From Acidaminobacter sp. (GTDB lineage: Bacteria > Bacillota_A > Clostridia > Peptostreptococcales > Acidaminobacteraceae), in the NCBI GenBank assembly GCA_009881125.1, contig WXFH01000017.1:1-64000 (forward strand): a stretch of DNA of 64,000 nucleotides. The letters are read 5' to 3'. Position numbers and translations under genes: made by a program. Positions 1,861-61,150 of the stretch are shown here, in pieces. The number at the start of each line of letters is the position of its first letter. Position 1 is the stretch's first letter. Below the pieces are notes generated by a model. The model did no database searches and had not been told where the DNA came from. It saw nothing but the letters and a program-made list of their open reading frames with translations.

Positions 1861-2139
1861 ATGGAAACCATTATCAGACCATCGGCCGATCTTAGAAATC
1901 ACTATAATGAGATCTCCAAACTTGTCAGGGAATCACGAAAAGCTGTCATTTTGACGGTAAACGGCAGAGGTGATACAGCTATTCTAAGCCTGCAGGAATT
2001 CAATCAAATGTCCGCTGAATTGGAATTATTAAGGACGCTCGCAGAAGCGGAAGATGACGTGAAAAATGGGAGAATCGAACCTATAGAAAATGTGTTTAAG
2101 GATCTTCGAGCAGAACTCCTCGAAAGGAACAATCGATGA
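1861..2139 (+). CDS. Type II antitoxin, Phd/YefM family
   Basis: This 92-residue protein is the probable antitoxin of a two-gene toxin-antitoxin module. It neutralises the downstream toxin by binding and represses its own promoter as a complex. The N-terminal half (SADLRNHYNEISKLVRESRKAVILTVNGRGDTAILSL, split over residues 8-45) has the Phd/YefM fold signature, in which the N-terminal domain binds DNA and the C-terminal tail wraps the toxin. The start has a good GAGGTGATCTA ribosome site. The gene overlaps the toxin start by four bases (ATGA), giving translational coupling. Codons 6-9 contain ACCATCGGC, one of the window's dispersed motif copies. Confidence 0.87.
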   Translation: METIIRPSADLRNHYNEISKLVRESRKAVILTVNGRGDTAILSLQEFNQMSAELELLRTLAEAEDDVKNGRIEPIENVFKDLRAELLERNNR

Positions 2140-2447
2140 CATACACTATTTTGAGAACGGATAAAGCTGAAGATCAGCTTAGAGATCTGATTTTTTATAT
2201 TGCGGACGACTCAGGTGATATTCAAATAGCTCTTGACTATCTGGAGAAACTGGAATCAGCGATTAACAGGTTGAAGGATTTTCCTGAATCAGGAAGTTTG
2301 CCAAGATACTCGATTTTAAAAAAGCAAGGTTACCGAGTCTTGATCGTTGAAAGGCATCTCATATTTTATAGGATATTTGTTGAGCAAGAAGAAATCATCA
2401 TATATGGAATTGTAGATGCACGAAGGGAATATCGAAATTTATTGTAA
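2136..2447 (+). CDS. Type II toxin, RelE/ParE family
   Basis: This 103-residue protein is a RelE/ParE-superfamily toxin. ParE members poison gyrase and RelE members cut mRNA on ribosomes, and the sequence alone does not say which. Supporting features are the early helix AEDQLRDLIFYIADDSGD, the LEKLESAINRLKDFPESG segment typical of ParE-like proteins, the central YRVLIVERHLIFYRI strand pair, and the C-terminal IYGIVDARREYRNLL, which resembles the usual ending VLHxRRD. The spacing and overlap with the antitoxin confirm the module. A motif-pair hairpin with a T run follows directly and probably ends the transcript. Confidence 0.87.
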   Translation: MTYTILRTDKAEDQLRDLIFYIADDSGDIQIALDYLEKLESAINRLKDFPESGSLPRYSILKKQGYRVLIVERHLIFYRIFVEQEEIIIYGIVDARREYRNLL

Positions 2448-2491
2448 AAGGCTGCAGATGGCGCTTCAAATGACCATCGGCAGCCTTTTTT
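2446..2491 (+). terminator. Terminator hairpin built on the ACCATCGGC motif
   Basis: AAAAGGCTGC-A-GATGG (2446-2461) pairs with CCATC-G-GCAGCCTTTTTT (2474-2491), with one A/G mismatch. The right arm contains the exact motif copy 2473-2481 and the left arm a degenerate one. It starts at the toxin stop codon. Confidence 0.75.
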
Positions 2492-2493
2492 CT

Positions 2494-2618
2494 GTACCTG
2501 GCACGTTTTTCGGAACACCAACGTGCAATTATTTTGTCAAGACTGATATTGCTTGCTTTCACGAAAAGTAACTTCATTAACTTCACTGGCGTTACCAGGT
2601 ACGGGAAAATGAAGTTAT
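2494..2618 (+). repeat. R1 repeat, copy A (~120 bp, inverted ends)
   Basis: GTACCTGG at the left and CCAGGTAC (2595-2602) at the right form inverted ends. The interior GCACGTTTTTCGGAACACCAACGT and ACTGATATTGCTTG blocks recur at 8697-8821 and 10553-10683. A motif hairpin (2619-2647) follows directly. No coding capacity is evident. It could be a MITE-like element or a structured RNA repeat. Confidence 0.75.
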
Positions 2619-2647
2619 GCCGATGGTGAATTATAACAACCATCGGC
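2619..2647. terminator. Inverted motif pair GCCGATGGT...ACCATCGGC
   Basis: Exact motif copies at 2619-2627 and 2639-2647 form a 9-bp stem around an 11-base loop. It lies between the convergent toxin-antitoxin and DUF362 genes, so it may end either transcript. There is no strong T run on either side. Confidence 0.5.
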
Positions 2648-3870: not shown

Positions 3871-3912
3871 CTGCCGATGGTCATGTGATGTACGCCATCT
3901 GACCATCGGCTA
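3871..3912. repeat. Inverted motif pair hairpin
   Basis: GCCGATGGTCA (3873-3883) pairs with TGACCATCGGC (3900-3910), an 11-bp perfect stem. The loop itself holds GATG/CATC arms. It is followed by TAAAATCTT, so the T run is poor. It lies between the divergent DUF362 gene and the riboswitch operon. Confidence 0.7.
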
Positions 3913-4293: not shown

Positions 4294-4983
4294 ATGAAAA
4301 AAGTTTCAGTCCTTGTAAGCATTGCATTAGCCCTCCTGTTTATGCCCTTGATCATTTCCTCCGCAGACGGTTCTGGCGGTGGAACTGGCGGTGGAACCGG
4401 GGGAGGCACCGGCGGCAACAGCTCAGAGCCGCTCACGCTAGTTTCCTCAACGGTCACGGATGGACAAACCGAAGTAGGTCTGACCCCGTCTGTCACCATG
4501 GTGTTCAGCAAGAACGTGACGGACCTCAGTGTCAAAGAAGCCAACCTGGCGTGCTTCAAGCTGGAGAAGAAAGACGGCGGTGAAGTCGCCTATGAAGTGC
4601 TGATGGCAGATTCGCAGGTTGAGCCTGATAAGAAGAATGATGTGGTGGTGAAACCATCGGCAGAACTGGAAGCCGGAACGGAATACATAGTGACGATCAG
4701 CAAAGCTCTGACTTCAAAGAGCGGGGCCAGCCTGGCAGAGGACATTGTCATCAGCTTCACGACAGCCGCCGCCGGCGGGGAGACTCCAATTACGACTGAA
4801 GCGCCGGCAACGACTGAAGCACCTGCTGCTGAAGCGCCAACAGCCGAAGCACCAATAGCCGAAGCGCCAGCCGCAGAGGAAGCTGGCACCGACAGCGCGC
4901 CATCCTCCATGATCTATGTCATGGCCGGCATTGCAGCTGTGATGCTGATCGCCGGGTACTGGATGAAGAAAAAGCGTTCATAA
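4294..4983 (+). CDS. Secreted, membrane-anchored Ig-like (Big_5) domain protein
   Basis: The protein has a signal peptide (MKKVSVLVSIALALLFMPL...SSADG), a glycine-rich GGGTGGGTGGG spacer, and one bacterial Ig-like domain of the SbsA type (VSSTVTDGQTEVGLTPSVTMVFSKNV to ITVSFTT-like end, residues about 50-155). It continues with an alanine/threonine/proline/glutamate-rich stalk of TEAPA repeats and a C-terminal membrane helix followed by KKKRS. The start at 4294 follows AAAGGGG and excludes an upstream in-frame ATG inside the terminator. It is the first gene after the Moco-type riboswitch and directly precedes the importer permease, so a role in surface binding of the same ligand is possible but unproven. 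Codons near 121 carry an ACCATCGGC copy. Confidence 0.7.
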   Translation: MKKVSVLVSIALALLFMPLIISSADGSGGGTGGGTGGGTGGNSSEPLTLVSSTVTDGQTEVGLTPSVTMVFSKNVTDLSVKEANLACFKLEKKDGGEVAYEVLMADSQVEPDKKNDVVVKPSAELEAGTEYIVTISKALTSKSGASLAEDIVISFTTAAAGGETPITTEAPATTEAPAAEAPTAEAPIAEAPAAEEAGTDSAPSSMIYVMAGIAAVMLIAGYWMKKKRS

Positions 4984-6824: not shown

Positions 6825-7933
6825 AACGTCATTGGCGTGCCACTTTACTCTCAGCAGTGCTTTTTCTGCCGATGGTCCTCTTACTCACCGCCTGCGCGCC
6901 ACAAACAAAGCCGGTTGAAGCCACTCCGCCAGCTCTGGAAGAGGCGGCCGCCACCCGAAGCATTGTTGACTGTGATGGCAGAACAGTTGAAATACCAGAA
7001 GGCGAGCTGAAGATCGCATGTCTTTACGCCTACGCCGGCCATGGCATGACTCTCCTTGACACCCAGGATCAGATCGTCGCCCTGGTGGAGGGACTCAAAC
7101 GCGATCAGCTGATGCGGATGAAACGCGCTGACATTGATAGGCTGAGTGTCCCTTCGGCGACCGGCGTCATCAATGTTGAGGAACTGATCGCTTCAGGCGC
7201 TGAGATCGCGCTGATCCGCCATTCCATAGCCCTCAGCGGGGCAGAAACGGAAAAGTTGGACAAGGCCGGCATCCCCTATGTTGTCATTGATTACACCAAC
7301 ATTGAGGAACAAAAGCGTTCCATTCAAGTACTGGGCGAGGTCCTGAACCGTCAGGAGGCTGCACAGGCTTATCTGGATTTTTATGAAGCTGCCATTGCCA
7401 TGGTCCAGGCGCGCATCAGCGACATTCCTATGGAAGAACGCGTCCGCGTCTATCACTCTGTCAATGAAGCGACCAGAACGGATGCCATGGGCAGCATTCA
7501 GGAAGAAGTGACCACCCTGGCGGGTCTGATCAATGTCTCCGCGGAGGCTGGCGCTGCCATGGCTGATGAAAAAACCTTTGTGACCCTGGAAGAAATCTAC
7601 GGCTGGAAACCGGAGGCGATCCTGGCCAATGAGTATCTGGTGGCAGACTATATCCGGACGGATGCCAAGTGGCAGGGCCTTGAGGCAGTCCAGTCCGGGC
7701 AGGTGTTTACGCTTCCTGTAGGCATTTCCAGATGGGGCCATCCCGGCTCCATAGAGACACCTATGGCTGTCCTGTACATGGCTCAGCTCTTTTATCCTGA
7801 AAAATTTGAGGATCTGGATCTGGTTCAGTATACAAAGGATTACTACGGGACCTACTTTGGACTTGAATTTGACTCTGAAGAAATCGAAGAAATCCTGTCC
7901 GGCGTCGGCATGCGCGCGGCAAAATCTTCATGA
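6821..7933 (+). CDS. ABC importer substrate-binding lipoprotein (peripla_BP_2 family)
   Basis: This 370-residue extracellular binding protein delivers the ligand to the permease. A signal peptide ends in the lipobox LLTAC (Cys near residue 25), so it is lipid-anchored. The mature part has the two-lobe FeB12-type fold: STRSIVDCDGRTVEIPE strand start, VEELIASGAEIALI and YVVIDYTNIEEQKRSIQVLGEVLN in lobe one, then VTLEEIYGWKPEAILANEY in lobe two. It starts with TTG after AGGAGGG. The substrate is not readable from sequence; molybdate or tungstate is inferred from the riboswitch. Codons in the signal peptide (LPMV) contain GCCGATGGT. Confidence 0.88.
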   Translation: MKRHWRATLLSAVLFLPMVLLLTACAPQTKPVEATPPALEEAAATRSIVDCDGRTVEIPEGELKIACLYAYAGHGMTLLDTQDQIVALVEGLKRDQLMRMKRADIDRLSVPSATGVINVEELIASGAEIALIRHSIALSGAETEKLDKAGIPYVVIDYTNIEEQKRSIQVLGEVLNRQEAAQAYLDFYEAAIAMVQARISDIPMEERVRVYHSVNEATRTDAMGSIQEEVTTLAGLINVSAEAGAAMADEKTFVTLEEIYGWKPEAILANEYLVADYIRTDAKWQGLEAVQSGQVFTLPVGISRWGHPGSIETPMAVLYMAQLFYPEKFEDLDLVQYTKDYYGTYFGLEFDSEEIEEILSGVGMRAAKSS

Positions 7934-8823: not shown

Positions 8824-8870
8824 AAAGCTGCCGATGGTCGTCATATACACAAGCGACCATCGGCAGCTTT
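8824..8870. terminator. 17-bp hairpin with two motif copies
   Basis: AAAGCTGCCGATGGTCG (8824-8840) pairs perfectly with CGACCATCGGCAGCTTT (8854-8870), loop 13 bases. It probably ends the riboswitch operon (T-rich CAGTTTTTG follows) and perhaps the converging yitT-type gene. Confidence 0.75.
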
Positions 8871-10704: not shown

Positions 10705-10754
10705 CTGCCGATGGGTGAAAATGACCATCGGCAGGCATTTTTTTTGGGGGGGGG
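10705..10754 (+). terminator. Motif hairpin with T8 run, then G9 tract
   Basis: CTGCCGATGG pairs with CCATCGGCAG (right motif copy 10724-10732), followed by T8 (10738-10745) and an uninterrupted G9 (10746-10754). It probably terminates the MerR transcript. The G tract could be length-variable. The rest of the spacer up to gdhA (10755-10973) is AT-rich and shows no clear feature. Confidence 0.7.
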
Positions 10755-12386: not shown

Positions 12387-12428
12387 AATTTCTGCCGATG
12401 GTTGATTATGTGACCATCGGCAGAAATT
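12387..12428 (+). terminator. 16-bp motif-pair terminator after gdhA
   Basis: AATTTCTGCCGATGGT (12387-12402) pairs perfectly with ACCATCGGCAGAAATT (12413-12428), followed by TTTCTTG. Both arms contain exact motif copies. Confidence 0.82.
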
Positions 12429-13141: not shown

Positions 13142-13187
13142 AAAACATCTGCCGATGGTGGGTTAAGTGACCATCGGCAGACGTTTT
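13142..13187. terminator. Motif-pair terminator
   Basis: AAAACATCTGCCGATGGT pairs with ACCATCGGCAGACGTTTT with one mismatch; exact motif copies at 13151-13159 and 13170-13178. It is placed between the convergent lipoprotein and MFS genes, with A-rich left and T-rich right flanks, so it can work on both strands. Confidence 0.8.
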
Positions 13188-14621: not shown

Positions 14622-14664
14622 ACATAACCGCTGATGGTGGGTGGGGTGACCATCGGCATATGTT
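14622..14664. terminator. Degenerate motif-pair hairpin
   Basis: ACATAACCGCTGATGGT pairs imperfectly with ACCATCGGCATATGT; the right copy (14649-14657) is exact and the left has one change (GCTGATGGT). TTTTAAAATCTTTTT follows. The spacer 14403-14834 otherwise holds only the repeat above and an AT-rich stretch. Confidence 0.6.
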
Positions 14665-15288: not shown

Positions 15289-15333
15289 ACTGCTGCCGAT
15301 GGTCTGTAAAATGACCATTTGCAGCAGTTTTTT
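15289..15333 (+). terminator. Motif-pair terminator with T run
   Basis: ACTGCTGC-CG-ATGGTC pairs with GACCAT-TT-GCAGCAGT, then TTTTTT. The left motif (15295-15303) is exact and the right is mutated to ACCATTTGC, leaving an internal mismatch. It closes the small membrane-protein unit. Confidence 0.78.
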
Positions 15334-20206: not shown

Positions 20207-21418
20207 ATGAAGCTCAGACCCCTTAAGGTCGCTGAAGTCAACAATTACATCAAGCAGCTCATGAACCGTGATCCCATCCTGCACCACCTGACGGTGGAAG
20301 GGGAAATCTCCAACTTCAAAAAACATTCCAGCGGACACCTTTACTTTACGCTGAAGGACGGCGAGGCCCGCCTCAGCTGCGTGATGTTCCGCTCAGATAC
20401 GATTCTCAGCCAGATTGACCTCTCAGACGGCATGATGGCATCCTGCACAGGCAACATTTCCATATACGAACGCGACGGCCGCTACCAGCTCTATGTCAGA
20501 AGCGTCGAGCGCCTGGGCGTAGGCGACCTCTATCAGCGCTTCGAAGCCTTGAAGACAGAACTGGCAGCCCTTGGCTATTTTGACCCAAAACACAAAAAGC
20601 CCATTCCCGAGCTTCCGGAGCGCATTGCCGTGGTCACATCACCTACCGGCGCCGCCATCCAGGACATTCTCAACGTGGGCTTCAGGCGTTCCCGCCTCCC
20701 AGAGGTCATCCTTCTGCCGGCAGCGGTTCAAGGTGAAGGCGCTGCTGCGTCCATTGCCAAAGCTATCCGCTATGCCAACGAAAAGAAGTTGGCCGATGTT
20801 CTTCTGATCGGCCGAGGCGGCGGTTCCATTGAAGAGCTCTGGGCCTTCAATGAGCGCGTCGTGGCGGAAGCCATCCATGATTCTGAAATTCCAGTTGTCT
20901 CGGCCGTAGGGCATGAGACGGACTTTACCATATCGGATTTTGTGAGCGATCAGCGGGTGCCGACACCATCGGCAGGGGCTGAGCTTTTATTCCCCAGCGA
21001 CAAAATGCTGGTCAGCGAACTCGCAGGCAGCTTAAACCGCATGCACGCCAAAATTGCCGCAAGGCTCATGACACTGCGGCATGAAATTGAGCGTCACTCG
21101 CCCCAGTCCGAGTTGAAGCGGCTGCAGGACGGCCTGAATCAGAAACGCATGACCCTGGACTACGAACGGGATCACCTGGATCAGAGCCTTCAGAACCGCC
21201 TCAGGCGCGAAAAAACCGCTCTGTCAGAGCTTGGGGCAGCGCTGAACGCGCTGTCGCCGCTGGGTGTCCTGGGAAGGGGCTACGCAGTCTTGACGGATGC
21301 GTCCGGACATGCTGTGGATGAGGTTTCCAAAGCTAAACCCGGCCAGAAACTGAAGGCCAAACTCAGAGACGGCGTCCTGGACGTCACCGTCGAAGCCATT
21401 ACAAAGGAGGCTCTCTAG
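20207..21418 (+). CDS. xseA: Exodeoxyribonuclease VII large subunit
   Basis: With XseB this subunit degrades single-stranded DNA into oligonucleotides. An N-terminal OB domain (VAEVNNYIKQLMNRDPILHHLTVEGEISNFKKHSSGHLYFTLKD) is followed by the catalytic domain with PTGAAIQDIL, IGRGGGSIEELWAFNE and SAVGHETDFTISDFVSDQRVPTPSAGAE, then a coiled-coil region. The length of 403 is normal. GGAGGTGG precedes the start. The codons for TPSAGAE contain an ACCATCGGC motif copy in a conserved segment. Confidence 0.96.
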   Translation: MKLRPLKVAEVNNYIKQLMNRDPILHHLTVEGEISNFKKHSSGHLYFTLKDGEARLSCVMFRSDTILSQIDLSDGMMASCTGNISIYERDGRYQLYVRSVERLGVGDLYQRFEALKTELAALGYFDPKHKKPIPELPERIAVVTSPTGAAIQDILNVGFRRSRLPEVILLPAAVQGEGAAASIAKAIRYANEKKLADVLLIGRGGGSIEELWAFNERVVAEAIHDSEIPVVSAVGHETDFTISDFVSDQRVPTPSAGAELLFPSDKMLVSELAGSLNRMHAKIAARLMTLRHEIERHSPQSELKRLQDGLNQKRMTLDYERDHLDQSLQNRLRREKTALSELGAALNALSPLGVLGRGYAVLTDASGHAVDEVSKAKPGQKLKAKLRDGVLDVTVEAITKEAL

Positions 21419-28334: not shown

Positions 28335-29126
28335 ATGACAGAAAAAGTTAAAGTCCTCTTGGTAGACGACAATCAAAATTTCATAGAACTTCTGAAAGAC
28401 AGGATTGAATTCAGCGATACTTTTGAGGTTATTGGTGAGGCCAATAATGGTGAGAAAGCGCTCGAACTGATGCTCTCCATGCGGCCTGATCTTGTCATTC
28501 TGGATATGATCATGCCTATGCTGGATGGCCTTGGGGTTCTGGAGCGGTTTAACCAGTCCGGGGTCAAAGATTATCACCCTAAAATCATCATTCTTTCTGC
28601 CATAGGTCAGGATTCACTGACCAGCCAGGCAATTGGTCTTGGTGCAAAATATTACATGGTCAAGCCTATTGATTTTGACCTTCTCATTGAACGTCTGGAG
28701 CAAATCATCCAGGAAGAGTCAAAGAACCTCTCTGTCACACCATCGGCTTCGCCAGGAGATGATTTCGCAGTGCAGCGCGTCATCACCGAGGTTCTGCAAA
28801 TGCTTGGGGTGCCGCCTCACATCAAAGGCTTTGTCTATCTCCGCGACGCGGTGGCCATGGTCTATGAGGACGAGAGCCATCTTATGAGAATTACGAAGAC
28901 CTTGTATCCCGGCATTGCGAAGCGGCACGATTCTACCTCTCAGAGAGTGGAGCGCTCGATCCGAAACGCGGTGGAGCTGACTTTCCAGCGTGGCTCCAAA
29001 GAGCTGTTCGCCAATTTCTTCAATTTGAATATGCCACTCAGCGAGGGCAGGATCACCAATGGCGAATTTATTGCCTATATTGCCCACCATGTTCGAAATG
29101 AGGTCAATCACGAGGCCAGCAGTTAA
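28335..29126 (+). CDS. spo0A: Sporulation response regulator Spo0A
   Basis: Spo0A is the master switch for entry to sporulation. The receiver domain (residues 1-125) has the acidic pair DD at 11-12, phosphoacceptor D57 in PDLVILDMIMPMLDG and the conserved lysine in YYMVKPIDF. The C-terminal DNA-binding domain holds the recognition helix TSQRVERSIRNAVELTFQRG. The linker (NLSVTPSASPGDDFAVQR) contains an ACCATCGGC copy. AAAGGAGT precedes the start. Normally spoIVB lies between recN and spo0A; here only 17 bases separate them. Confidence 0.97.
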   Translation: MTEKVKVLLVDDNQNFIELLKDRIEFSDTFEVIGEANNGEKALELMLSMRPDLVILDMIMPMLDGLGVLERFNQSGVKDYHPKIIILSAIGQDSLTSQAIGLGAKYYMVKPIDFDLLIERLEQIIQEESKNLSVTPSASPGDDFAVQRVITEVLQMLGVPPHIKGFVYLRDAVAMVYEDESHLMRITKTLYPGIAKRHDSTSQRVERSIRNAVELTFQRGSKELFANFFNLNMPLSEGRITNGEFIAYIAHHVRNEVNHEASS

Positions 29127-30443: not shown

Positions 30444-30642
30444 ATGGAAGAAGAAAAAGGGGTGGAGATAGGGGCTGCGTGGAAAGGTGTGTCTCCAGCC
30501 AGCGCTTGTCACCCCCATTCCCGCCACCATCGGCATCATTTTTTTGCAGTTTCAAGTCTTCATTCGACGTTTTATGGGTATGATTAAAAGTGTCCAGTTA
30601 ACACCAAATGGATTCAATCTCAAAATGAGGTGATTTGTTTAG

Positions 30643-31860: not shown

Positions 31861-31930
31861 TGGGATGGGGGCTTTTGGGTGACCATCGGCTAAAAAAAAG
31901 TTTTTGAACTTTTTATGAGGGGGATTTTTT

Positions 31931-41159: not shown

Positions 41160-43223
41160 TCATCTGATAAGTGTAAATGTATGAATGTTATCAGCTGGTG
41201 TAATACCATCCCAAATGCAGCCTGGGGCGCTAATATTGGTAACTGTTGTAATATAAGTACCCGCTTTGATGTTTGTAAGTGTGAAGGTGACTTGACCTGT
41301 ATTGGAGATTTTGGTTGAAGTTAATACTGTTTTTCCATCACGCGTCACTTTACAGGAGACAGAGGTGTTGTTAACAACAGGACTTAACAAAACAGTAATC
41401 TCCAGATTGGTCTTGCCTGCGCGGGCCGGTACCTCATTATAGAGGATCTTTGTGGCACCAATGGTAATCGCTTGAAGCTCTTCAACGGTGAACTGAATGA
41501 TGCCTTCCCCGACTGCTGAGTTAGAATCTGCTACTGTTGCGATCGCAGTGTAACTGCCTGCAGAGAGTGTAAGATCATGATCAGGACCCTCGTAGAACAC
41601 TAAGTTGGTGCCATCATATATAGACCAGGTAATATTCGGGGTCAAGGTTCCTTCTTCAGCATCTGAAGCGGTTGCCCTAAAGTTAATCACCTCATTGGAA
41701 TAGAAATGGTCTCCATCCGCTGGCGAATGGATTGTTACCAACGGTGGCGTGTTCTCAGCGGTCGATGATACTACAGTGATACTGACCAGGTCTGACCCCG
41801 TCTGTTCGTTAGAGTCGGTGACTGAGGCTTGGATCTCGTGGGCTCCTATAGTCAATGTTGACAAATTGAATGAGCCGCCACTGCCAATATTCCCATTAAG
41901 GCTGGACGTCCAGACGATCGAGGAAGTCAGATTCCCATCCTCAAGATCCGTCGCAGAAGCCGTGAAGGTGATATTCTGGCCGATGGTGAAGGTTTCACCA
42001 TCCATCGGCGAAGTAATAGTCACTGAAGGTGGGGCATTAAGTGGCGGTGTGCCAAGGACGGCTTCGTCCGCGTCGACAAGGCCATAACCATAATCACGGT
42101 CTCGGCCTAAAGCACCGAGGTCATCCGCAGTGGCCTGAAGTCGGCTTCTCACTGCCGAAGCGCTGGTGATGCCTGATTTCATAACCAGAGCTGCCGCACC
42201 GACAACATGCGGCGTCGCCATAGAGGTGCCACTCCAGGTCGCGTAACCGCCTGGAATAGTGGATTCAATGGAAACGCCAGGGGCGGAGAGTTCCACAGAT
42301 GGACCGAAGCTTGAAAATGAAGCGACTTTGTTGGCACTGTCAGTGGCTGCAACGGCTACGACGGAGCTATACCAGGCAGGGTAGCTGACGATGTCAGTGA
42401 AAAAGAGTGAATACCATTTGGTTCGGTCATTTCCGGCGGCAGCGATCTGAAGGAGCCCTTCCGCATAGGCCGCGTCAAAGACGGCTTTGAAGGTGCTGCC
42501 TGGATCTGTCATGACGCCATAGCTGTTGTTGGTGATTTGAATGCCATTGTCTACACACCATTCGACTGCTGCCATAATGTTGCCCAGGGAACCTGAGCCG
42601 TTGGCATCAAGAACTTTCAAGGCATAGAGGGAAACGCCCGGGGCTGCGCCTGCGAGACCTTGTCCGTTCATGACTGCCGCAATGGTGCCTGCGACGTGGG
42701 TGCCGTGGCCGTGGTCGTCCATAGGGTTGGCGTCGTTGTTGACAAAGTCATAACCGGTAACGTATTTGCCGGCAAGATCAGGGTGGGTGTAGTCGAGGCC
42801 GGTGTCGATGATGCCGACTTTAATACCGGCGCCAGTATTGCTTTGCTGGTGCACCAGGTCAGCGCCAATGCGCGTAATGCCCCATGGGTAGGTGTCTGCC
42901 AGCGCTTGAACGGTAAGATCGGGCTCGATCAGGGCGATTTTTGGATTGTGTCGCAGCGCTTCGAGAGCTGCGCGCGGAAGGGTTGCGGCCATGGCAGGAA
43001 CAAGGTGGTATGTATGGCTGACAGCGCCGCCATGGGCGCGGATCAGAGCTTCTTCAGAAGCGCCAGGTTGTTGGTGGAAGGCAATGAGCACCGCTGCTTT
43101 TTCGGTTCCGGACGCTGAATCTGGCTCAGACGCGAAGACCGTCCCAGACAGCAGGGAGGTGAGGACCAGGATCAGGGTAAGCAACAGGGCAGTGTGACGT
43201 TTGACATTAGACTTTGATTTCAT
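41160..43223 (-). CDS. Secreted subtilisin-like serine protease (S8) with Ig/PKD-like repeats
   Basis: This 687-residue protease has a signal peptide (HTALLLTLILVLTSLLSGTVFA), an I9-like propeptide segment (VLIAFHQQPGASEEALIRAHGG), and an S8 catalytic domain with D in GIIDTGLDYTHPDL, H in GHGTHVAGTIAA, N in NNSYG-like oxyanion region and S in GTSMATPHVVGAAAL. Two Ig/PKD-like repeats follow (NAPPSVTITSPMDGETFTIGQNITFTASATDLEDG and the similar ENTPPLVTIHSPADGDHF), then a beta-rich end. The ATG at 43223 follows AGAGGTGATCCAC. Probably nutritional: peptide supply for amino-acid fermentation. The first repeat contains an inverted motif pair. Confidence 0.93.
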   Translation of the reverse strand: MKSKSNVKRHTALLLTLILVLTSLLSGTVFASEPDSASGTEKAAVLIAFHQQPGASEEALIRAHGGAVSHTYHLVPAMAATLPRAALEALRHNPKIALIEPDLTVQALADTYPWGITRIGADLVHQQSNTGAGIKVGIIDTGLDYTHPDLAGKYVTGYDFVNNDANPMDDHGHGTHVAGTIAAVMNGQGLAGAAPGVSLYALKVLDANGSGSLGNIMAAVEWCVDNGIQITNNSYGVMTDPGSTFKAVFDAAYAEGLLQIAAAGNDRTKWYSLFFTDIVSYPAWYSSVVAVAATDSANKVASFSSFGPSVELSAPGVSIESTIPGGYATWSGTSMATPHVVGAAALVMKSGITSASAVRSRLQATADDLGALGRDRDYGYGLVDADEAVLGTPPLNAPPSVTITSPMDGETFTIGQNITFTASATDLEDGNLTSSIVWTSSLNGNIGSGGSFNLSTLTIGAHEIQASVTDSNEQTGSDLVSITVVSSTAENTPPLVTIHSPADGDHFYSNEVINFRATASDAEEGTLTPNITWSIYDGTNLVFYEGPDHDLTLSAGSYTAIATVADSNSAVGEGIIQFTVEELQAITIGATKILYNEVPARAGKTNLEITVLLSPVVNNTSVSCKVTRDGKTVLTSTKISNTGQVTFTLTNIKAGTYITTVTNISAPGCIWDGITPADNIHTFTLIR

Positions 43224-45257: not shown

Positions 45258-47363
45258 GTGACCGACCTAATCACTCAAACTCAATCGCTGCTGGCACTGC
45301 CGCTTGAAGAACTCATTGCGCACCTTGAAGAAAGAGTCAACGCGCTGAATCGCGCCCACGACGGCATTTTGACCCAGCTTCTGCTCGCAGCTGAAGATTA
45401 TAAATCCGAAACTCCAAACGCCACCCTCAGAGTCTTCCTCGTCGGCGGCGCTGTCCGCGACTTGATCCTCGGCCGCGACGTCCGCGACCTGGACGTGGTC
45501 ATAGAAGGCGAGATCACCAAACTAACCGACCGCCTCACTAACATTGACTGGCAGTACTACGACCGCTTCATGACCGCCTCAGGCATCCTGGACACAGGGG
45601 AGATCGATCTGATCACCGCCCGCAGCGAACGCTATGAAGCCCCCGGACAGCTCCCTACAGTCACGCCAGGAACCATTGAGGACGACCTGAAACGCCGGGA
45701 CTTCACCGTCAACGCCATGGCCCTTGAGCTGGAACTTCTGGACTACGTGGCCTCTGAAACTTGCGACTTAAGCACCGCCCGCACGATCCTGATCCAGCTG
45801 CTGGATCCCCTAAAAGGCCTCGATGACCTGAAAGCCAAAGACCTCAGAGTCCTTCACGACCAGAGCTTTTACGACGATCCCACCCGTCTGTACCGCGCGG
45901 TCCGCTACATGGCCCGAGTAGGTCTGACCCCGGTGGACACAACAGAAAAACAAATGAAAGAAGCCATAGAAGCGGGTGTACTGAAAACCCTGACCAATGA
46001 CCGCATTATGCGCGAGCTGTTCCTCAACTTCAGTGACGGCCACTGCGAGGAGGCTGTTCGCTTGATGCTCGACCTAGGTCTCCTGATCACAACAGAGGAC
46101 AACACCGCACCAACCTCTGAGGCCCTGATCCAGGCCATAGCCTTTGCCCGGGTCGTCGAGCACGCCCCCGGTCTCTGCGGTGACGACAAGGCGAGTCACC
46201 TGTTCGGTTATTTTTCCCAAACCTCCCCGGACTTCGCCGAGCGCTTCCGTCAGTGCTCGCTGCCCCGCAAACTCAAAAATGCGGCCCGCGCACTTAACAC
46301 CACGTCCCCAGACGCCCTGGCCCAGCAGCTGAACCTCCACGAGGTCCCGCCACTTAATACCCAACTCGCTTCGCCCCCCAAAAACCAATCAGATTCTGAT
46401 GATCACCCAGCCCAATCCGAATCCCTACCAATCACCTCCGCTTACTCCGTCAAGCTGGACGCCTTCGAAGGCCCCATGGACCTCCTGCTCCACCTGATCC
46501 AGGACAACGAAATCGATATCTACGATATCCCTGTGGCCACCCTCTGCACCCAGTACCTCGACTACCTGATCCATATGGAAACGGCACGCGTCGACATTGC
46601 CGGCGAATTCCTGGTCATGGCCGCCACGCTCCTTGAGATCAAGTCCATGATGCTGCTGCCGGACCGTGAAGCGGGCATTTTCGAAGCCTGGGATGTGGCC
46701 GAGGACCCGCGTACGGAGCTCGTCACCAAACTCGTCGAGTACAAGCGCTACAAGGAAGCCGCAAGGCTCCTCAGTGGCCTCGAGCTGCAGGACGGCGCTT
46801 ATTTCACTCGTGAGGCCTCAGATCTCTCTGAAATCCTCCCTCAGAATCCGGAAACCCTCAACGAGCCTACCGAGATTGATCTTCTCACAGAAGCCCTAAA
46901 ACGGGTGCTCACCAAACTGGATCGCACCGATACCCACAGAGAGCATTTTTTCTCCACCCTGAACCGTGAGCCCTACGCTGTGGAGGACGCCATCAAGGCG
47001 CTGACGGCCCGCCTCAAGGAAGTGAACGACATTTCCTTTGAAGCCCTGTTCGAGGGCGGCGCAACCCGCAACGTCGTTGTAACCACGTTTCTGGCCCTTC
47101 TTGAGCTTTTGAAGCTGAAGCGCGTTCGTGTGGTTCAGGACGAGATGTTCAGCGGCATCCTGATTCGGCGCAGGGAACCATCGGAAACTGAAGAGGAATT
47201 GATTCAGGAGTCCCTGCTGGAGCACTGGTATGAGACGTCTCAGTCCCAAGACACCAATGCCGCTGCCGATGGTTCCCAGGTCCAAAACCCTCAAAGCCGC
47301 GGCAATAACCACAACGAAAACCATAACGAAGACCACTACGATGAAGAAGGGGAGACCGACTGA
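45258..47363 (+). CDS. scpA: tRNA nucleotidyltransferase-like/ScpA fusion protein
   Basis: This 701-residue frame joins two families. Residues 57-205 are a poly(A)/CCA polymerase-type head (FLVGGAVRDLILGRDVRDLDVVI with catalytic D77 and D79, EDDLKRRDFTVNAMAL, YDDPTRLYRAVRY), followed by a partial neck to about 345. A low-complexity linker (350-390) leads to ScpA at about 397-655 (YSVKLDAFEGPMDLLLHLIQDNEIDIYDIPVATLC), the kleisin that bridges SMC in chromosome condensation. The DNA before ScpA has no ATG or ribosome site, so ScpA is made only as the fusion. The body and tail domains of CCA enzymes are missing. The tail AADGSQ carries a motif copy. scpB starts on the stop codon. Confidence 0.88.
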   Translation: MTDLITQTQSLLALPLEELIAHLEERVNALNRAHDGILTQLLLAAEDYKSETPNATLRVFLVGGAVRDLILGRDVRDLDVVIEGEITKLTDRLTNIDWQYYDRFMTASGILDTGEIDLITARSERYEAPGQLPTVTPGTIEDDLKRRDFTVNAMALELELLDYVASETCDLSTARTILIQLLDPLKGLDDLKAKDLRVLHDQSFYDDPTRLYRAVRYMARVGLTPVDTTEKQMKEAIEAGVLKTLTNDRIMRELFLNFSDGHCEEAVRLMLDLGLLITTEDNTAPTSEALIQAIAFARVVEHAPGLCGDDKASHLFGYFSQTSPDFAERFRQCSLPRKLKNAARALNTTSPDALAQQLNLHEVPPLNTQLASPPKNQSDSDDHPAQSESLPITSAYSVKLDAFEGPMDLLLHLIQDNEIDIYDIPVATLCTQYLDYLIHMETARVDIAGEFLVMAATLLEIKSMMLLPDREAGIFEAWDVAEDPRTELVTKLVEYKRYKEAARLLSGLELQDGAYFTREASDLSEILPQNPETLNEPTEIDLLTEALKRVLTKLDRTDTHREHFFSTLNREPYAVEDAIKALTARLKEVNDISFEALFEGGATRNVVVTTFLALLELLKLKRVRVVQDEMFSGILIRRREPSETEEELIQESLLEHWYETSQSQDTNAAADGSQVQNPQSRGNNHNENHNEDHYDEEGETD

Positions 47364-48986: not shown

Positions 48987-49427
48987 ATGATGCTTTTAAA
49001 AACCGCTGAAAAAGAAGATTTCGCAGATCTTCAGAAATTCATAGAGGAAGAGGGGATCACCGTCCCTGCGAATTTCCCTCAAAACCTCGAAGTTGTCGTC
49101 GCACGGGAAAAGGAAAAGGTCCTCGGCTTTGTCACCGCGGAGCTCGTCATTCTGGATCCCACCATCCGCCACCTCTATATGACGCCTGCCCTCAGAAACA
49201 AAAAGTTTGCCGATGGTCTCCTGAGAGCCATTATGTTCTACATGCTCAACCGCGGCTTCGGCTGGGTTTATGCTGACAACAATACCGAAATCTCGGGCTA
49301 CCTGACCCGCTTTGGCTTTGAAGCAGATCCGGAGGTTAAGGACCGCCTCGCCCTCGAAATCGACCCGTTCTTCGACAGAGGCTGCCAAGGCTGCAACAGC
49401 GCTAAAAAAGCCCCTGTCCAGCTATAA
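48987..49427 (+). CDS. GNAT-like acetyltransferase domain protein
   Basis: This 146-residue protein has the GNAT fold outline: VVVAREKEKVLGFVTAELVI strand pair, then IRHLYMTPALRNKKFADGLLRAIMFYMLNRGFGWVYADN in the cofactor-binding region and SGYLTRFGFEADPE at the end. The acetyl-CoA loop (normally R/Q-x-x-G-x-G/A) is only weakly matched (RNKKFADG), so activity is uncertain. The FADGLL codons contain GCCGATGGT. The C-terminal CQGCNSAKK stretch is unusual. AAAGGAGCC precedes the ATG. surE follows 46 bases later. Confidence 0.65.
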   Translation: MMLLKTAEKEDFADLQKFIEEEGITVPANFPQNLEVVVAREKEKVLGFVTAELVILDPTIRHLYMTPALRNKKFADGLLRAIMFYMLNRGFGWVYADNNTEISGYLTRFGFEADPEVKDRLALEIDPFFDRGCQGCNSAKKAPVQL

Positions 49428-50305: not shown

Positions 50306-50393
50306 GCCGATGGTTTCCCGCCACCACCAAACCACAGTGAGCATCCCGCCCGAACCCAGATTGGAGAAGGGGATAGAAGATGTGACCATCGGC
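50306..50393. repeat. Inverted motif pair with 70-base spacing
   Basis: Exact copies GCCGATGGT (50306-50314) and ACCATCGGC (50385-50393), in opposite orientation but 70 bases apart, flank GC-rich sequence. They are too distant for a compact terminator, unlike the other pairs. Possible insertion between the two arms. Confidence 0.6.
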
Positions 50394-54440: not shown

Positions 54441-55196
54441 ATGGAATCAGATTCGACTAGTAAAATCCAGATTGCGCTGGACGGGCCCGCCGGCTCGGGC
54501 AAGAGCACTGTTGCCCGCAGGGTGGCCAAAGCGCTGGGCTGTGACTATATAGACACCGGCGCCATGTACCGGGCCATTGCCCTGAAGTTCATTGAAACCG
54601 GCCTCTTTCAAAAGCTGGATGGATATGCCGATGGTCGCGAAAACACACCCCCAAGCACCCCCGAACTGACCCCTGAACTCGACCTCGAAATTGATCACCT
54701 TCTGGATACCACCGGCCTGGAGCTCTACACTGAACAGGTCATTCTGGACGGAAGGGACGTCTCAGAGGCCATCCGGACTCAGGAAGTCACCCGCCGGGTC
54801 TCTCAGGTAGCTGCCATGTCGGCAGTGCGCAGGCACCTGGTCAAAATGCAGCGCGCCCAGGCAGAGGGCCGAAGCGTCGTCATGGACGGCCGCGATATTG
54901 GCACCGTGGTGCTCCCTGAAACGCGCTACAAATTCTTCCTGACAGCCTCCCTTGAAGAGCGGGCACGCAGGCGGTTCCTGGAGTTTGAAGCCCGGGGCTT
55001 TTCCGCAGACTTCGACACGATCCTTAAAGACATTGCCCACCGGGATCAGGTGGACAGCAGCCGCGAGGATTCTCCGCTGGTCATGGCGGAGGACGCGTTT
55101 CGCATTGATACCACGGGAAAGAGTATTGACCAGGTCGTGGCAGCTATCTGCGACGCTGTAGAAAAGTTGCGAAGAGGGGAGGCGCCTCCGTGCTGA
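54441..55196 (+). CDS. cmk: Cytidylate kinase
   Basis: Cmk phosphorylates CMP and dCMP. The P-loop is ALDGPAGSGKSTVARRVAKALG, then YIDTGAMYRAIAL, MDGRDIGTVVLPETRYKFFLTA and RDQVDSSREDSPL. At 251 residues it is about 25-30 longer than usual. Part of the extra length is the segment GYADGRENTPPSTPELTPELD near residue 60-80, which contains a GCCGATGGT copy and lies in the variable NMP-binding region. It overlaps plsC by seven bases. Confidence 0.95.
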   Translation: MESDSTSKIQIALDGPAGSGKSTVARRVAKALGCDYIDTGAMYRAIALKFIETGLFQKLDGYADGRENTPPSTPELTPELDLEIDHLLDTTGLELYTEQVILDGRDVSEAIRTQEVTRRVSQVAAMSAVRRHLVKMQRAQAEGRSVVMDGRDIGTVVLPETRYKFFLTASLEERARRRFLEFEARGFSADFDTILKDIAHRDQVDSSREDSPLVMAEDAFRIDTTGKSIDQVVAAICDAVEKLRRGEAPPC

Positions 55197-55784: not shown

Positions 55785-56657
55785 ATGAATATCAGAATAG
55801 CCTCTGCCTCCGGATTTTGCTTTGGCGTCAAGCGTGCACTGGAGCTGACTTTGGATGCCAGGAAGGCTCCTGCAGGCGCGGTCACCTATGGCGAGCTGAT
55901 TCACAACCGGGATGTGGTTCGAAAGCTGGAACAAGAAGGCGTCAGCGTCATTGAGGATCTGAAGGAGGTTCAGGGTACCGGCAAAACCGTGGTCATCCGT
56001 TCCCACGGTGTCCCCAAGTCCTTTCACGATGAGGCGGCTTCCCTTGGAATTCCATTGGTGGATGGCACGTGTCCTTTCGTAAAAAAAATCCACAGACTCG
56101 TGGACGGCTTCAGTCAGGATGGTTCAGCAGTAATGATTGTAGGCACTGCCACGCATCCGGAGGTTGTCGGCATTGCCGGCTGGTGTCATGGTCCGGTGTT
56201 TGTGGTGGATTCTCTGGAGGCGCTTGTGGCTTGGGAGAGCCAGAACATATCTGCCGATGGTCACTTCTCCCACCCCCTCATGCTGGTGGCACAGACAACC
56301 ATACGCCTGTCTCTGTGGGACTCGGTTTACGCACACCTATCTGAGCGCGCCATGCATCTTGTCGCACACAACACGATCTGCAAAGCCACCTCCGAACGAC
56401 AGGCGAGCGCAGAGACCCTTTCTTCCGAAGTCGACTGCATGCTGGTGGTAGGGGGTCCCCATTCGTCAAATACAAAGAAACTCTACGAAATTTGTAAAAA
56501 AAATTGTGAAAATACCTATTTTATTGAATCTGCGGCAGATTTACAGATGATAAATTTGTTGAACTGTGATAATATAGGAATAACGGCTGGAGCATCCACA
56601 CCGGATTGGGTGATGGATGACATCTTGAATCAGTTAAAAAAAATTTCAAATAGTTGA
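55785..56657 (+). CDS. ispH: 4-hydroxy-3-methylbut-2-enyl diphosphate reductase
   Basis: The last enzyme of the MEP pathway, a [4Fe-4S] protein. Cluster cysteines lie in SGFCFGVKRALE, VDGTCPFVKKIH and HNTICKATSERQ; HGVPKSFHDEA and GGPHSSNTKKLYEIC are conserved. Normal length of 290. The start at 55785 follows AAGGGGAGGGC and is preferred to an upstream frame reading back into plsC. The segment SADGHFSHP near 155 contains a motif copy in a variable loop. It pairs with dxs and ispA elsewhere in the window. Confidence 0.95.
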   Translation: MNIRIASASGFCFGVKRALELTLDARKAPAGAVTYGELIHNRDVVRKLEQEGVSVIEDLKEVQGTGKTVVIRSHGVPKSFHDEAASLGIPLVDGTCPFVKKIHRLVDGFSQDGSAVMIVGTATHPEVVGIAGWCHGPVFVVDSLEALVAWESQNISADGHFSHPLMLVAQTTIRLSLWDSVYAHLSERAMHLVAHNTICKATSERQASAETLSSEVDCMLVVGGPHSSNTKKLYEICKKNCENTYFIESAADLQMINLLNCDNIGITAGASTPDWVMDDILNQLKKISNS

Positions 56658-59424: not shown

Positions 59425-59586
59425 ATGGACGGGATCCCTCACCTAAATAAGATTTTTTGCATCATCTGTTTTGAATGACTCAGTAATAGTATTATACACC
59501 TAAAAGGAGAAAAAGCGTCATGGTGTTCACACATTGTTTACATATAAAATCTTTCACTATTTCTTCTGACTTGAAAAGCGTTCAGG

Positions 59587-59615
59587 TTGGTGCCATCTAA
59601 AATTTCTGATATAAT
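59587..59615 (+). promoter_or_regulatory. SigA-type promoter of miaB-mutS-mutL
   Basis: TTGGTG (59587-59592), 17 bases, TATAAT (59610-59615), 62 bases before the miaB start. Confidence 0.68.
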
Positions 59616-59677
59616 AAAGGGATGAAATTTTATCGCTTCAAATAGCTGATTTTAAGTTTTTATGAGGAGGAAACACA

Positions 59678-61150
59678 TTGAAACGCACTGAAAGGCCGCC
59701 ACTTTCTGCGTCTGCTTACGCAGACCAGTCCTATTATATTCAAATACAACGAAATCTGAATGCGCAGTTCGAGGTCGACCACGACCGGAAGCGGCGGTTC
59801 ATGATCATGACCTATGGCTGTCAGATGAATGAGCACGACTCTGAAAAATTGACGGGCATGCTCGGAGAAATGGGTTATGTGGAAGCACTGAAGAAGGAAG
59901 ATGCTGATCTCATAATTTTCAACACCTGCTGTGTCAGAGAAAACGCTGAGCTCAGAGTCTATGGCAATCTTGGCGCGCTGAAACCGCTTAAAAAAAAGAA
60001 TCCGGATCTGCGTATTGTTGTCTGCGGCTGCATGATGCAGCAGCCTCACGTGGTTGAGGAAATCAAGGCTAAGTATGCCCATGTATCCCTGGTTTTTGGG
60101 ACGCACAATCTTCATCAGTTCCCGCATCTGCTGTCACAGACCTATACGTCCTCACATCTGCTGGTGGATGTTTGGGATTCGGAGGGCGAAGTCATAGAAG
60201 GCCTTCCGGTGACGCGCAAAGTGGGCATCAAGGCGTATGTCAACATCATGTACGGCTGCAATAACTTCTGCACCTATTGTATTGTGCCTCATACACGGGG
60301 TCGGGAACGGAGCAGGACGCCGGAGTCCATAGTCAGGGAAATCGAGGGACTGGTTCGGGACGGCGCCAAAGAAGTGACGCTGCTCGGGCAAAATGTCAAT
60401 TCTTATGGGCGGGGGCTGGAACCATCGGCAGAAAGCACTGGAGAAGGCTTTGAGGCTGTAAAAGACTTCCCGTCACTCCTGGAGCGCGTCAGCAAAATTG
60501 AAGGACTAAAACGGATCCGGTTTATGACCAGCCATCCTAAGGACATTTCAGACGAGCTGATCGAAGTCATGGCTCGCTGTGAAAACATCTGCGAGTACCT
60601 GCACCTGCCGGTTCAGTCTGGGAGCGACCGGGTGCTGAAGGCCATGAACCGGCACTACACCAAAGGGCAGTATCTGGACATTCTGGAGCGGGCGCGAAAG
60701 CGCATCCCTGGACTTGCGGTAACGACGGACATTATTGTCGGTTTTCCCGGGGAGACGGAGGAGGACCACGAAGAGACCATGTCACTGATCGAGCAGGCCC
60801 GCTATGATTCGGCGTTTACGTTTATGTATTCCATCCGGACGGGCACGCCGGCTGCGGAGCGTGAGGACCAGGTGCCGGAGGACGTGAAGCACGCGCGGTT
60901 TGACCGGATGCTGAAGCGGATGAACGAAATTGTGATCGAGAAGAACAAAGTCCACGTGGGTGAGACATACGAGGTTCTGGTTGAGCAGCAGGGCAAGGAT
61001 GGGGAAGGCACGCTGATTGGCCGCACCCGCCATAATCATCTGGTGGCGTTTGAGGGACCCCTGGACTTAGTCGGGGCCTTTGCCATGGTCAAGATCACGA
61101 AGTCTAAAAATTTCTCCCTGGTTGGGGATATAGTGGAAGTGCTGGCTTAG
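59678..61150 (+). CDS. miaB: tRNA-2-methylthio-N6-dimethylallyladenosine synthase
   Basis: MiaB adds a methylthio group to i6A37 in tRNA using radical SAM chemistry. The 490 residues show the N-terminal UPF0004 cysteines (TYGCQMNEHDSEKL, FNTCCVRE, VCGCMMQQ), the radical SAM motif YGCNNFCTYCIVPHTRGRERSR and a C-terminal TRAM domain (GETYEVLVEQQGKDG...). TTG start after GAGGAGG. The segment RGLEPSAESTGEGFEAV carries a motif copy between core blocks. Confidence 0.96.
   Translation: MKRTERPPLSASAYADQSYYIQIQRNLNAQFEVDHDRKRRFMIMTYGCQMNEHDSEKLTGMLGEMGYVEALKKEDADLIIFNTCCVRENAELRVYGNLGALKPLKKKNPDLRIVVCGCMMQQPHVVEEIKAKYAHVSLVFGTHNLHQFPHLLSQTYTSSHLLVDVWDSEGEVIEGLPVTRKVGIKAYVNIMYGCNNFCTYCIVPHTRGRERSRTPESIVREIEGLVRDGAKEVTLLGQNVNSYGRGLEPSAESTGEGFEAVKDFPSLLERVSKIEGLKRIRFMTSHPKDISDELIEVMARCENICEYLHLPVQSGSDRVLKAMNRHYTKGQYLDILERARKRIPGLAVTTDIIVGFPGETEEDHEETMSLIEQARYDSAFTFMYSIRTGTPAAEREDQVPEDVKHARFDRMLKRMNEIVIEKNKVHVGETYEVLVEQQGKDGEGTLIGRTRHNHLVAFEGPLDLVGAFAMVKITKSKNFSLVGDIVEVLA

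What the first reader, a model, noticed from the sequence alone, without database searches (positions are those of the whole stretch)
1878..60429. Uptake-sequence-like 9-mer ACCATCGGC spread through the window
I counted 33 exact copies of ACCATCGGC or its complement by eye: 1878, 2473, 2619, 2639, 3873, 3902, 4653, 6868, 8830, 8856, 10724, 12394, 12413, 13151, 13170, 14649, 15295, 20965, 28739, 30526, 31882, 33062, 36628, 38679, 39310, 41979, 47265, 49209, 50306, 50385, 54627, 56253, 60421 (first bases). A random 9-mer should appear about 0.5 times on both strands of 64 kb. The flanks agree further (about GACCATCGGCAG). Copies in both spacers and genes, with inverted pairs serving as terminators, are the known pattern of Neisseria and Haemophilus DNA uptake sequences. 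To my knowledge no such system is described in Clostridia. The sequence shows the enrichment; an uptake role is inference.
Basis: partly seen in the sequence, partly recalled or inferred. Interest (0 to 1): 0.93.

Follow-up and report, generated by a model that had tools for sequence, protein, structure and literature searches.

The report
DNA self-uptake tag in Clostridia
Two anaerobic bacteria of the genus Acidaminobacter each carry one nine-letter DNA word about 800 to 1,000 times, far above chance and kept while the DNA around it changes; it likely works as a tag by which the cells would recognise and take up DNA of their own kind, a habit best known from two families of a very different bacterial group.

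Summary
The word is genome-wide: 1011 copies in G001, 99.86% identical to the window over 11 kb, and 819 in Acidaminobacter hydrogenoformans (reversed control word: 10 each). No other of the 391 further genomes sampled from the order comes near (at most 120). It is not mobile: in 410 kb aligned between the two species the 9-mer is kept at 33 of 83 and 33 of 55 sites (background 12.8%) although its flanks are less conserved than average, and unmatched sites are mostly gapless substitutions. It is not polar and not a by-product of codon use. The core sits in a ~28-bp asymmetric consensus; inverted pairs in the window fold as hairpins. ComEC, DprA, a ComEA-like protein and type IV pilus genes are present, though in G001 the pilus cluster is cut by a contig end. 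This resembles Neisseriaceae DUS and Pasteurellaceae USS, in a Clostridial genus, with an unrelated sequence. Uptake itself and the receptor are untested. Best reading: an independently evolved uptake sequence (0.8).

The parts
1878..1886 (+). core motif, inside small ORF 1861-2139
2473..2481 (+). core motif, intergenic
2619..2647 (.). inverted pair of cores (2619 -, 2639 +) between convergent genes; hairpin -21.8 kcal/mol, z -5.7
3873..3910 (.). inverted pair (3873 -, 3902 +), upstream of gene 2672-3760(-) and of the Moco riboswitch; hairpin -29 kcal/mol, z -5.2
4653..4661 (+). core motif in ORF 4216-4983
6868..6876 (-). core motif in ABC transporter substrate-binding-like gene 6821-7933 (weak family match below cut-off)
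8830..8864 (.). inverted pair (8830 -, 8856 +) between convergent genes; terminator-like hairpin -35.3 kcal/mol, z -8.0, T-rich tails on both strands
10724..10732 (+). core motif, intergenic, followed by a T-run
12394..12421 (.). inverted pair (12394 -, 12413 +) behind gene 10932-12311; terminator-like hairpin -28.9 kcal/mol, z -7.4
13151..13178 (.). inverted pair (13151 -, 13170 +) between convergent genes; terminator-like hairpin -28.3 kcal/mol, z -6.4
14649..14657 (+). core motif, intergenic, near c-di-GMP-II riboswitch
15295..15303 (-). core motif, intergenic
20965..20973 (+). core motif in xseA
28739..28747 (+). core motif in spo0A
30526..30534 (+). core motif, intergenic, followed by a T-run
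31882..31890 (+). core motif, intergenic
33062..33070 (-). core motif in pyrimidine-nucleoside phosphorylase gene
36628..36636 (+). core motif in sensor histidine kinase gene 36270-38897(-)
38679..38687 (-). core motif in sensor histidine kinase gene 36270-38897(-)
39310..39318 (+). core motif in xanthine permease gene 39271-40629(-)
41979..41987 (-). core motif in ORF 41160-43232(-)
47265..47273 (-). core motif in nucleotidyltransferase-ScpA fusion ORF 45258-47363
49209..49217 (-). core motif in ORF 48987-49427
50306..50314 (-). core motif, intergenic
50385..50393 (+). core motif, intergenic
54627..54635 (-). core motif in cmk
56253..56261 (-). core motif in ispH
60421..60429 (+). core motif in miaB

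Best explanation
ACCATCGGC is the fixed core of a roughly 28-bp asymmetric DNA sequence; the core is found 1011 times in G001 (the window's species, judged by identity) and 819 times in Acidaminobacter hydrogenoformans, and it likely serves as a DNA uptake sequence, a tag by which the competence machinery would preferentially bind and import DNA of the genus. Shown by calls: genome-wide excess on both strands, in genes and spacers, found in this genus alone among the genomes sampled; conservation of the core within less-conserved flanks; mostly gapless, substitution-type differences at unmatched sites; a longer consensus of about G(-15), G/T-rich -14 to -8, T(-7), G(-3), G(-1), core, A, A/G, A, A; hairpin-forming inverted pairs; ComEC, DprA, ComEA-like and type IV pilus genes. 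Inferred: a surface protein of the pilus, most likely a minor pilin, reads the core, with the upstream G/T-rich segment one helical turn away as a second contact; the pilus retracts, ComEA and ComEC pass the strand in, and recombination with tagged kin DNA restores and spreads the tags (molecular drive and/or selection for safe sex). Closely spaced inverted tags are probably reused as transcription terminators.
For: Enrichment: 33 vs 0.5 in the window; 1011 in G001 vs 10 of the reversed word; 819 vs 10 in G156, which is A. hydrogenoformans DSM 2784; top 9-mer against an order-4 Markov model in window (33 vs 0.59), 598 kb of G001 (133 vs 2.08) and 545 kb of A. hydrogenoformans (110 vs 0.77). 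Specificity: 2 of 393 genomes sampled from the order, both of this genus; GACCATCGGCA 436 and 438 in the two species, at most 10 in each of 390 other genomes sampled from the class. Conservation: 410 kb aligned at 77.0% identity, each stretch used once; 9-mer kept at 33/83 (window/G001 sites) and 33/55 (A. hydrogenoformans sites) vs 12.8% of ordinary 9-mers; flanks of 102 sites 73.4% identical vs 77.1% (p 1e-5), the pattern Treangen et al. report for neisserial DUS (PMC2397512, passages). DNA-level: TIG written ACCATCGGC 60 of 113 (7.1 expected from codon use), ADG written GCCGATGGT 59 of 127 (4.2 expected) in G001 samples; 22 of 67 (3.7) and 20 of 54 (1.6) in A. hydrogenoformans samples. No polarity: 48:39 and 29:24 relative to GC skew. 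Extended consensus from 156 sites with no complementary 5-mer nearby, reproduced in 141 sites of other contigs, 3 of them also in the window. 54 of 274 one-mismatch variants have site-like flanks (background 5%; control words 5/210, 7/161, 22/374). Machinery.
Against: No transformation, DNA binding or uptake was tested, and the paper searches turned up no report of competence in this genus. ComEC is in 39 of 41 family genomes, so the machinery does not single out this genus. No receptor is identified: four pilin-like proteins of the A. hydrogenoformans cluster have acidic globular parts and 0, 0, 0 and 1 cysteines, unlike disulphide-bonded ComP. G001 shows no N-methyl pilin and no canonical PilB; contig C47 ends inside pilO, which makes an assembly gap likely but does not prove presence. 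The ComEA-like proteins are below the curated cut-off of TIGR00426. Density is uneven: 53 sites in 335 kb of G001 C2 against 141 in 384 kb of contigs C9-C28 and 33 in the 64 kb window. Sites in genes show no orientation bias (92:87 and 39:32) and no bias to gene ends, unlike what van Passel reports for US motifs (PMC2346458, abstract). Nine of 83 and 6 of 55 sites align to gaps. Some other genomes of the order have a modest excess of the word over its control (G282 87 vs 14, G179 43 vs 1).
Confidence: 0.8

Rival explanations
1. A HIP1-like abundant short word: a dispersed motif kept by mutation bias, DNA modification or an intracellular DNA-binding protein, with no role in uptake.
For: Such words exist in cyanobacteria (recalled); the enrichment, point-substitution turnover and gene/spacer spread would look alike. 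No uptake was tested.
Against: HIP1 is a palindrome (recalled); this word is not. It has a long asymmetric flank, is denser in spacers (18 of 33 in 14% of the window) and is paired into terminator-like hairpins, as DUS and USS are (PMC1852404, passages).
Confidence: 0.1
2. A chromosome-organising or recombination signal such as Chi, KOPS or a nucleoid-protein site.
For: Hundreds of dispersed non-palindromic sites; density varies along the chromosome.
Against: Sites are strand-balanced within long contigs: 48:39 in G001 C2 (p 0.39), 29:24 in A. hydrogenoformans C25 (p 0.58), 17:15 in four stretches of C19; Chi and KOPS are strand-biased (recalled). The excess over expectation (64-fold and 143-fold) is far above what I recall for Chi. 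A non-polar nucleoid-protein site is less well excluded.
Confidence: 0.06
3. A small mobile or REP-like repeat that carries the 9-mer.
For: Longer interspersed repeats do occur in relatives and in this genus.
Against: Nothing outside the core is fixed; unmatched sites in the congener align without gaps in 41 of 50 and 16 of 22 cases; two thirds of the sampled G001 sites lie in long reading frames (179 of 275).
Confidence: 0.01
4. Only a transcription-terminator building block.
For: Five pairs in the window fold as strong hairpins, several with T-rich tails.
Against: Of 276 sites examined only 52 have another site within 100 bp, and most sites lie inside genes, on either strand alike.
Confidence: 0.02

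Closest known systems
DNA uptake sequence (DUS) of Neisseriaceae, read by the minor pilin ComP
   Same: Short fixed core in hundreds to thousands of copies, both strands, conserved core in permissive flanks, inverted pairs as terminators, type IV pilus and ComEC present.
   Different: Unrelated sequence (GCCGTCTGAA in Neisseria, PMC1852404); Clostridial host; long G/T-rich upstream flank; no ComP-like disulphide pilin found in the A. hydrogenoformans cluster.
Uptake signal sequence (USS) of Pasteurellaceae
   Same: 9-bp core (AAGTGCGGT, PMC5031613) with weaker extended flanks to about 30 bp, hundreds of copies, terminator pairs, no confirmed receptor.
   Different: Unrelated core; the flank here is upstream and G/T-rich, whereas the extended USS has AT-rich segments downstream (PMC12616744); no orientation or gene-end bias.
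DNA binding by type IV pilins in Clostridia (PilJ and PilW of Clostridioides difficile)
   Same: Clostridial pilins can bind DNA in vitro (PMC9556784, passages).
   Different: The passages read report no uptake sequence there; here a genomic tag is present.

Membership tests
Uptake sequences in general (DUS/USS) | Short core in hundreds to thousands of copies far above expectation, spread over the genome | tested here: met
   1011 and 819 copies, reversed control 10 each; top 9-mer in the samples
Uptake sequences in general (DUS/USS) | Both orientations, in genes and spacers, enriched in spacers | tested here: met
   497:514 in G001; window 18 in 14% spacer DNA, 15 in genes; 2.1- and 2.3-fold outside long ORFs in the samples
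Uptake sequences in general (DUS/USS) | Inverted pairs used as terminator hairpins | tested here: inconclusive
   5 of 5 close pairs in the window fold with z -5.2 to -8.0 and 4 of 5 lie behind gene ends; termination itself not tested, and pairs of the other arrangement, some without T-rich tails, occur in the samples
Uptake sequences in general (DUS/USS) | Core conserved although flanks are more variable than average | tested here: met
   33/83 and 33/55 vs 12.8%; flanks 73.4% vs 77.1%
Uptake sequences in general (DUS/USS) | Competence machinery encoded (ComEC, DprA, ComEA, type IV pilus) | tested here: met
   A. hydrogenoformans: ComEC, DprA, ComEA-like (below cut-off), PilB/PilT, pilins and the rest of a pilus cluster by reading. 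G001: ComEC, DprA, ComEA-like, PilD, PilM, PilN; rest of pilus cluster beyond a contig end
Uptake sequences in general (DUS/USS) | DNA with the sequence is taken up preferentially | not testable with these tools
   needs cells
Uptake sequences in general (DUS/USS) | Orientation bias in reading frames (van Passel 2008) | tested here: not met
   92:87 and 39:32; reported for all cases in that paper's abstract; a reported regularity, not what defines uptake
Uptake sequences in general (DUS/USS) | Absent from recently acquired DNA | tested here: inconclusive
   the syntenic block held only 3 kb and 0 kb of long species-specific DNA
Neisserial DUS with ComP | Core GCCGTCTGAA and a disulphide-bonded minor pilin ComP | tested here: not met
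   different word; pilin-like proteins of the A. hydrogenoformans cluster have 0, 0, 0 and 1 Cys; pilins elsewhere in the genome not excluded
Pasteurellaceae USS | Core AAGTGCGGT or the ACAAGCGGTC dialect (PMC1939737, passage) | tested here: not met
   the top word is ACCATCGGC
HIP1 | Palindromic octamer (recalled) | tested here: not met
   ACCATCGGC is not a palindrome
Chi / KOPS | Strand bias relative to replication (recalled) | tested here: not met
   48:39, 29:24, 17:15
REP or mobile repeat | Larger repeated unit that appears by insertion | tested here: not met
   unmatched sites mostly gapless substitutions; only the core is fixed

The most novel reading that the evidence does not exclude
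A third, independently evolved self-DNA uptake code, in the Gram-positive class Clostridia: a two-part tag (9-bp core plus a G/T-rich segment one helical turn upstream) read by a fast-evolving minor pilin of Acidaminobacter, showing that sequence-tagged sex is neither proteobacterial nor tied to an outer membrane.
Probability: 0.7. Interest if true: 0.93.

Novelty: new variant of a known kind. Interest (0 to 1): 0.87.

Why it matters
Reviews read here in passages place uptake sequences in Pasteurellaceae and Neisseriaceae (PMC5031613, 2016: two families; PMC13192263, 2026: 'particularly' these two). A Clostridial case would mean that self-tagging for transformation arose again, in a lineage recalled to have no outer membrane, which bears on why tags exist at all (drive, safe sex, or the physics of threading DNA through an outer-membrane pore). 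It also predicts natural competence in a genus where the papers searched record none, and gives a direct test: a tagged fragment against a scrambled one.

Tried and rejected
Mobile repeat: rejected. Polar signal (Chi, KOPS): rejected by strand balance. Protein or codon effect: rejected. Lack of a type IV pilus in G001: put down to a contig end in pilO, not proven. Dialects in the family: samples of 14 other family genomes (twelve of 60 kb, one of 40 kb, one of 17 kb) gave no comparable word; the two strongest hits, in G074 and G138, are parts of longer repeats, and the rest score at most 6.8. In the same test a low-density 60-kb stretch of G001 scored 8.9 and richer ones 18.8 and 26.3, so a sparse code in a relative is not excluded. 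Named loci around dxs (at most 22 kb each) were too short or distant to judge dialects. A receptor: the PilV-like minor pilin has no relative but itself found among about 5.8 billion proteins, and the cluster's pilins are acidic, so no candidate was singled out; no structure was predicted. A Tad-type cluster was seen in G001 but not tied to the motif. A paper search for the bare 9-mer gave 331 papers, of which the 10 listed titles look unrelated. Literature searches for uptake sequences in Firmicutes, Clostridia or Acidaminobacter showed no report of one in the rows listed; the library holds open-licence papers only.
Full report
Observation. One search confirms all 33 exact copies of ACCATCGGC at the listed coordinates (expected 0.50; 0 of 100 shuffles reach 33). 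In one search the commonest words of each length from 8 to 12 in the window are parts of this motif, and each of the 27 one-mismatch variants occurs 0-3 times, so the core is sharp.

Whose genome. The window's own assembly is not held. The nearest, G001 (3.2 Mb, 70 contigs), is 99.86% identical over 11,182 bases, so I treat it as the same species. A congener, G156, is Acidaminobacter hydrogenoformans DSM 2784: locus L035 of that record lies in G394, which has the same counts and listed places as G156. The genus belongs to Clostridia, Peptostreptococcales.

Genome-wide. G001 holds 497 + 514 copies against 4 + 6 of the reversed word; G156 holds 401 + 418 against 6 + 4. In the sample of 393 genomes of the order these two stand alone. 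The next highest are G389 with 120 (control 46) and G273 with 112 (control 27); a few others have a modest excess over the control (G282 87 vs 14, G179 43 vs 1), which I did not follow. With GACCATCGGCA the counts are 436 and 438 in the two species and at most 10 in each of 390 other genomes sampled from the class (G156 was not in that draw). Against an order-4 Markov model the word ranks first among 9-mers in the window (33 vs 0.59), in 598 kb of G001 (133 vs 2.08) and in 545 kb of A. hydrogenoformans (110 vs 0.77).

Anatomy. Among 276 sites, 156 have no close partner and no 5-mer complementary to the core within 30 bp. These give, with core positions numbered 0-8: G at -15 (48%, C only 2%), G/T-rich -13 to -8, T at -7 (50%), G at -3 (61%), G at -1 (62%), A at +9 (69%), A/G at +10, A at +11 (67%), A at +12 (48%). 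A sample of 141 sites from contigs C9-C28, 3 of them also in the window, gives the same picture. So the element is about 28 bp, asymmetric, with a weak segment about one helical turn upstream. Of 274 one-mismatch variants, 54 have flanks above the background's 95th percentile; three control words give 5/210, 7/161 and 22/374. The variants most like true sites include C3T, C6T and A1G transitions, as decayed sites would be; others, such as T5G and G7C, are at background.

Genes and spacers. With a hand-made gene list, 18 of 33 window sites lie in the 14% of the window that is spacer (p 5e-8) and 15 in genes. Across the G001 samples 179 of 275 sites lie in ORFs of at least 130 aa, and 71 of 110 in A. 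hydrogenoformans; both orientations are equal (92:87, 39:32), with no bias to gene ends. The excess is at the DNA level: Thr-Ile-Gly is written ACCATCGGC 60 of 113 times in the G001 samples (7.1 expected from codon use) and Ala-Asp-Gly as GCCGATGGT 59 of 127 times (4.2 expected); the same holds in A. hydrogenoformans (22 of 67 vs 3.7; 20 of 54 vs 1.6). All five close pairs of the window are arranged complement first, and fold at -21.8 to -35.3 kcal/mol, z -5.2 to -8.0. Four lie behind gene ends, the fifth (3873/3902) does not. In the samples, pairs of the other arrangement also occur (6 of 12 in G001, 2 of 6 in A. hydrogenoformans). Kingsford et al. describe such use of uptake-sequence pairs as terminators (PMC1852404, passages).

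Evolution. In 410 kb aligned between the species (77.0% identity, each stretch used once) the 9-mer is kept at 33 of 83 sites seen from the window/G001 and 33 of 55 seen from A. hydrogenoformans, against 12.8% of ordinary 9-mers (p 6e-10 and 2e-16). The roughly 190 bp around 102 sites are less conserved than background (73.4% vs 77.1%, p 1e-5). Unmatched sites align gaplessly in 41 of 50 and 16 of 22 cases; the rest (9 and 6) meet gaps (on smaller or partly overlapping sets, agree). This is what Treangen et al. report for neisserial DUS: highly conserved words in slightly more divergent parts of the core genome (PMC2397512, passages); they also report many DUS facing gaps or unrelated sequence, put down to recombination. 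It argues strongly against a mobile repeat.

Polarity. Within long contigs the strands are balanced relative to GC skew: 48:39, 29:24 and 17:15 (in A. hydrogenoformans C25 two stretches with skew near zero or of opposite sign were oriented by their own sign). Chi and KOPS, recalled as strand-biased, do not fit.

Machinery. ComEC is in both species (open frames of 768 and 799 aa) and DprA in both. A 172/167-aa protein with an N-terminal hydrophobic stretch and a helix-hairpin-helix domain, ComEA-like but below the TIGR00426 cut-off, is in both. A. hydrogenoformans has a type IV pilus cluster that I read as PilD, PilM, PilN, a PilO-like protein with S-layer domains, PilB, PilT, PilC, a pilin and three further pilin-like proteins; PilB and PilT rest on PF00437, three pilins on PF07963 and the S-layer domains on Pfam, the other names on sequence, order and likeness to G001. 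G001 gave no canonical PilB and no N-methyl pilin, but its contig C47 carries pilD, pilM and pilN (Pfam) in the same order and ends at base 17,943, just inside pilO: most likely an assembly gap. ComEC is nearly universal in the family (39 of 41), so machinery alone does not explain why this genus has the word.

Relatives and dialects. Samples of 14 other family genomes show no comparable dispersed 9- or 10-mer; the strongest hits, in G074 and G138, lie in longer repeats. The samples are small, and a sparse code would be missed. Either the tag arose in this genus, or other genera use weaker codes.

Mechanism. The most likely reading is an uptake sequence: a pilus-borne receptor reads the core and possibly the upstream segment, the pilus retracts, ComEA and ComEC pass the DNA in, and recombination with tagged DNA restores tags, giving conservation amid permissive flanks. 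Shown: the sequence facts above. Inferred: binding, uptake, receptor, drive. The receptor is unknown; a PilV-like minor pilin of A. hydrogenoformans has no relative but itself found among about 5.8 billion proteins, a weak lead only.

Known and new. Reviews read in passages place uptake sequences in Pasteurellaceae and Neisseriaceae (PMC5031613; PMC13192263, which says 'particularly'); the Pasteurellaceae receptor is so far only predicted, a minor pilin (PMC12616744, passages). A search of two Veillonella parvula genomes for such words found no sequence of 10 bp or more present 100 times or more (PMC5397411, passages). [quoted passage not shown] Searches listed no report of an uptake sequence in Firmicutes that I could see. 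I file this as a new variant of a known kind: it meets most tested genomic hallmarks (orientation bias not met; absence from acquired DNA and terminator use inconclusive), its word is unrelated, and uptake is untested.

Noticed in passing
window 14565, 15407-15441, 35309-35367, 48805-48911: A second repeat, GTGTCAGACAC (11 copies), mostly in arrays with a 24-bp period; TGTCAGACA occurs 65 times in 384 kb of G001. Function not examined.
   Followed up: partly
window 45258-47363: One 701-aa reading frame joins a tRNA nucleotidyltransferase-like part (residues 55-312) and segregation/condensation protein A (394-642), both below the models' full-length cut-offs.
   Followed up: no
window 1-1777: Group II intron with a reverse-transcriptase ORF at the window's left end.
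   Followed up: no
L015 10355-11548: PilO-like protein of the A. hydrogenoformans pilus cluster carries S-layer homology domains.
   Followed up: no
L164-L165 (G074): In another genus of the family, a dispersed longer repeat with the core AAGAGCGACTT and partly conserved flanks on both sides.
   Followed up: partly
L158-L159 (G138): A longer, often palindromic stem-loop repeat ending in TGACCTGACACCTTTT in another genus.
   Followed up: partly
G156 sample: GTCCCCAACCA recurs 39 times in 545 kb of A. hydrogenoformans, a separate repeat.
   Followed up: no
G001 C2:1-335000 and G156 C25:38000-375000: Motif density is about two times lower here (53 sites in 335 kb; 39 in 337 kb) than elsewhere in each genome; density follows GC along these contigs (rho 0.55 and 0.65) but not in contigs C9-C28 (rho 0.21, p 0.37). 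Unexplained.
   Followed up: partly
window 3873-3910: A strong inverted pair sits between a gene start and a molybdenum-cofactor riboswitch, not behind a gene end.
   Followed up: no
G282 and G179 (same order): The 9-mer is modestly commoner than its reversed control (87 vs 14; 43 vs 1); codon use or a weak code, not examined.
   Followed up: no
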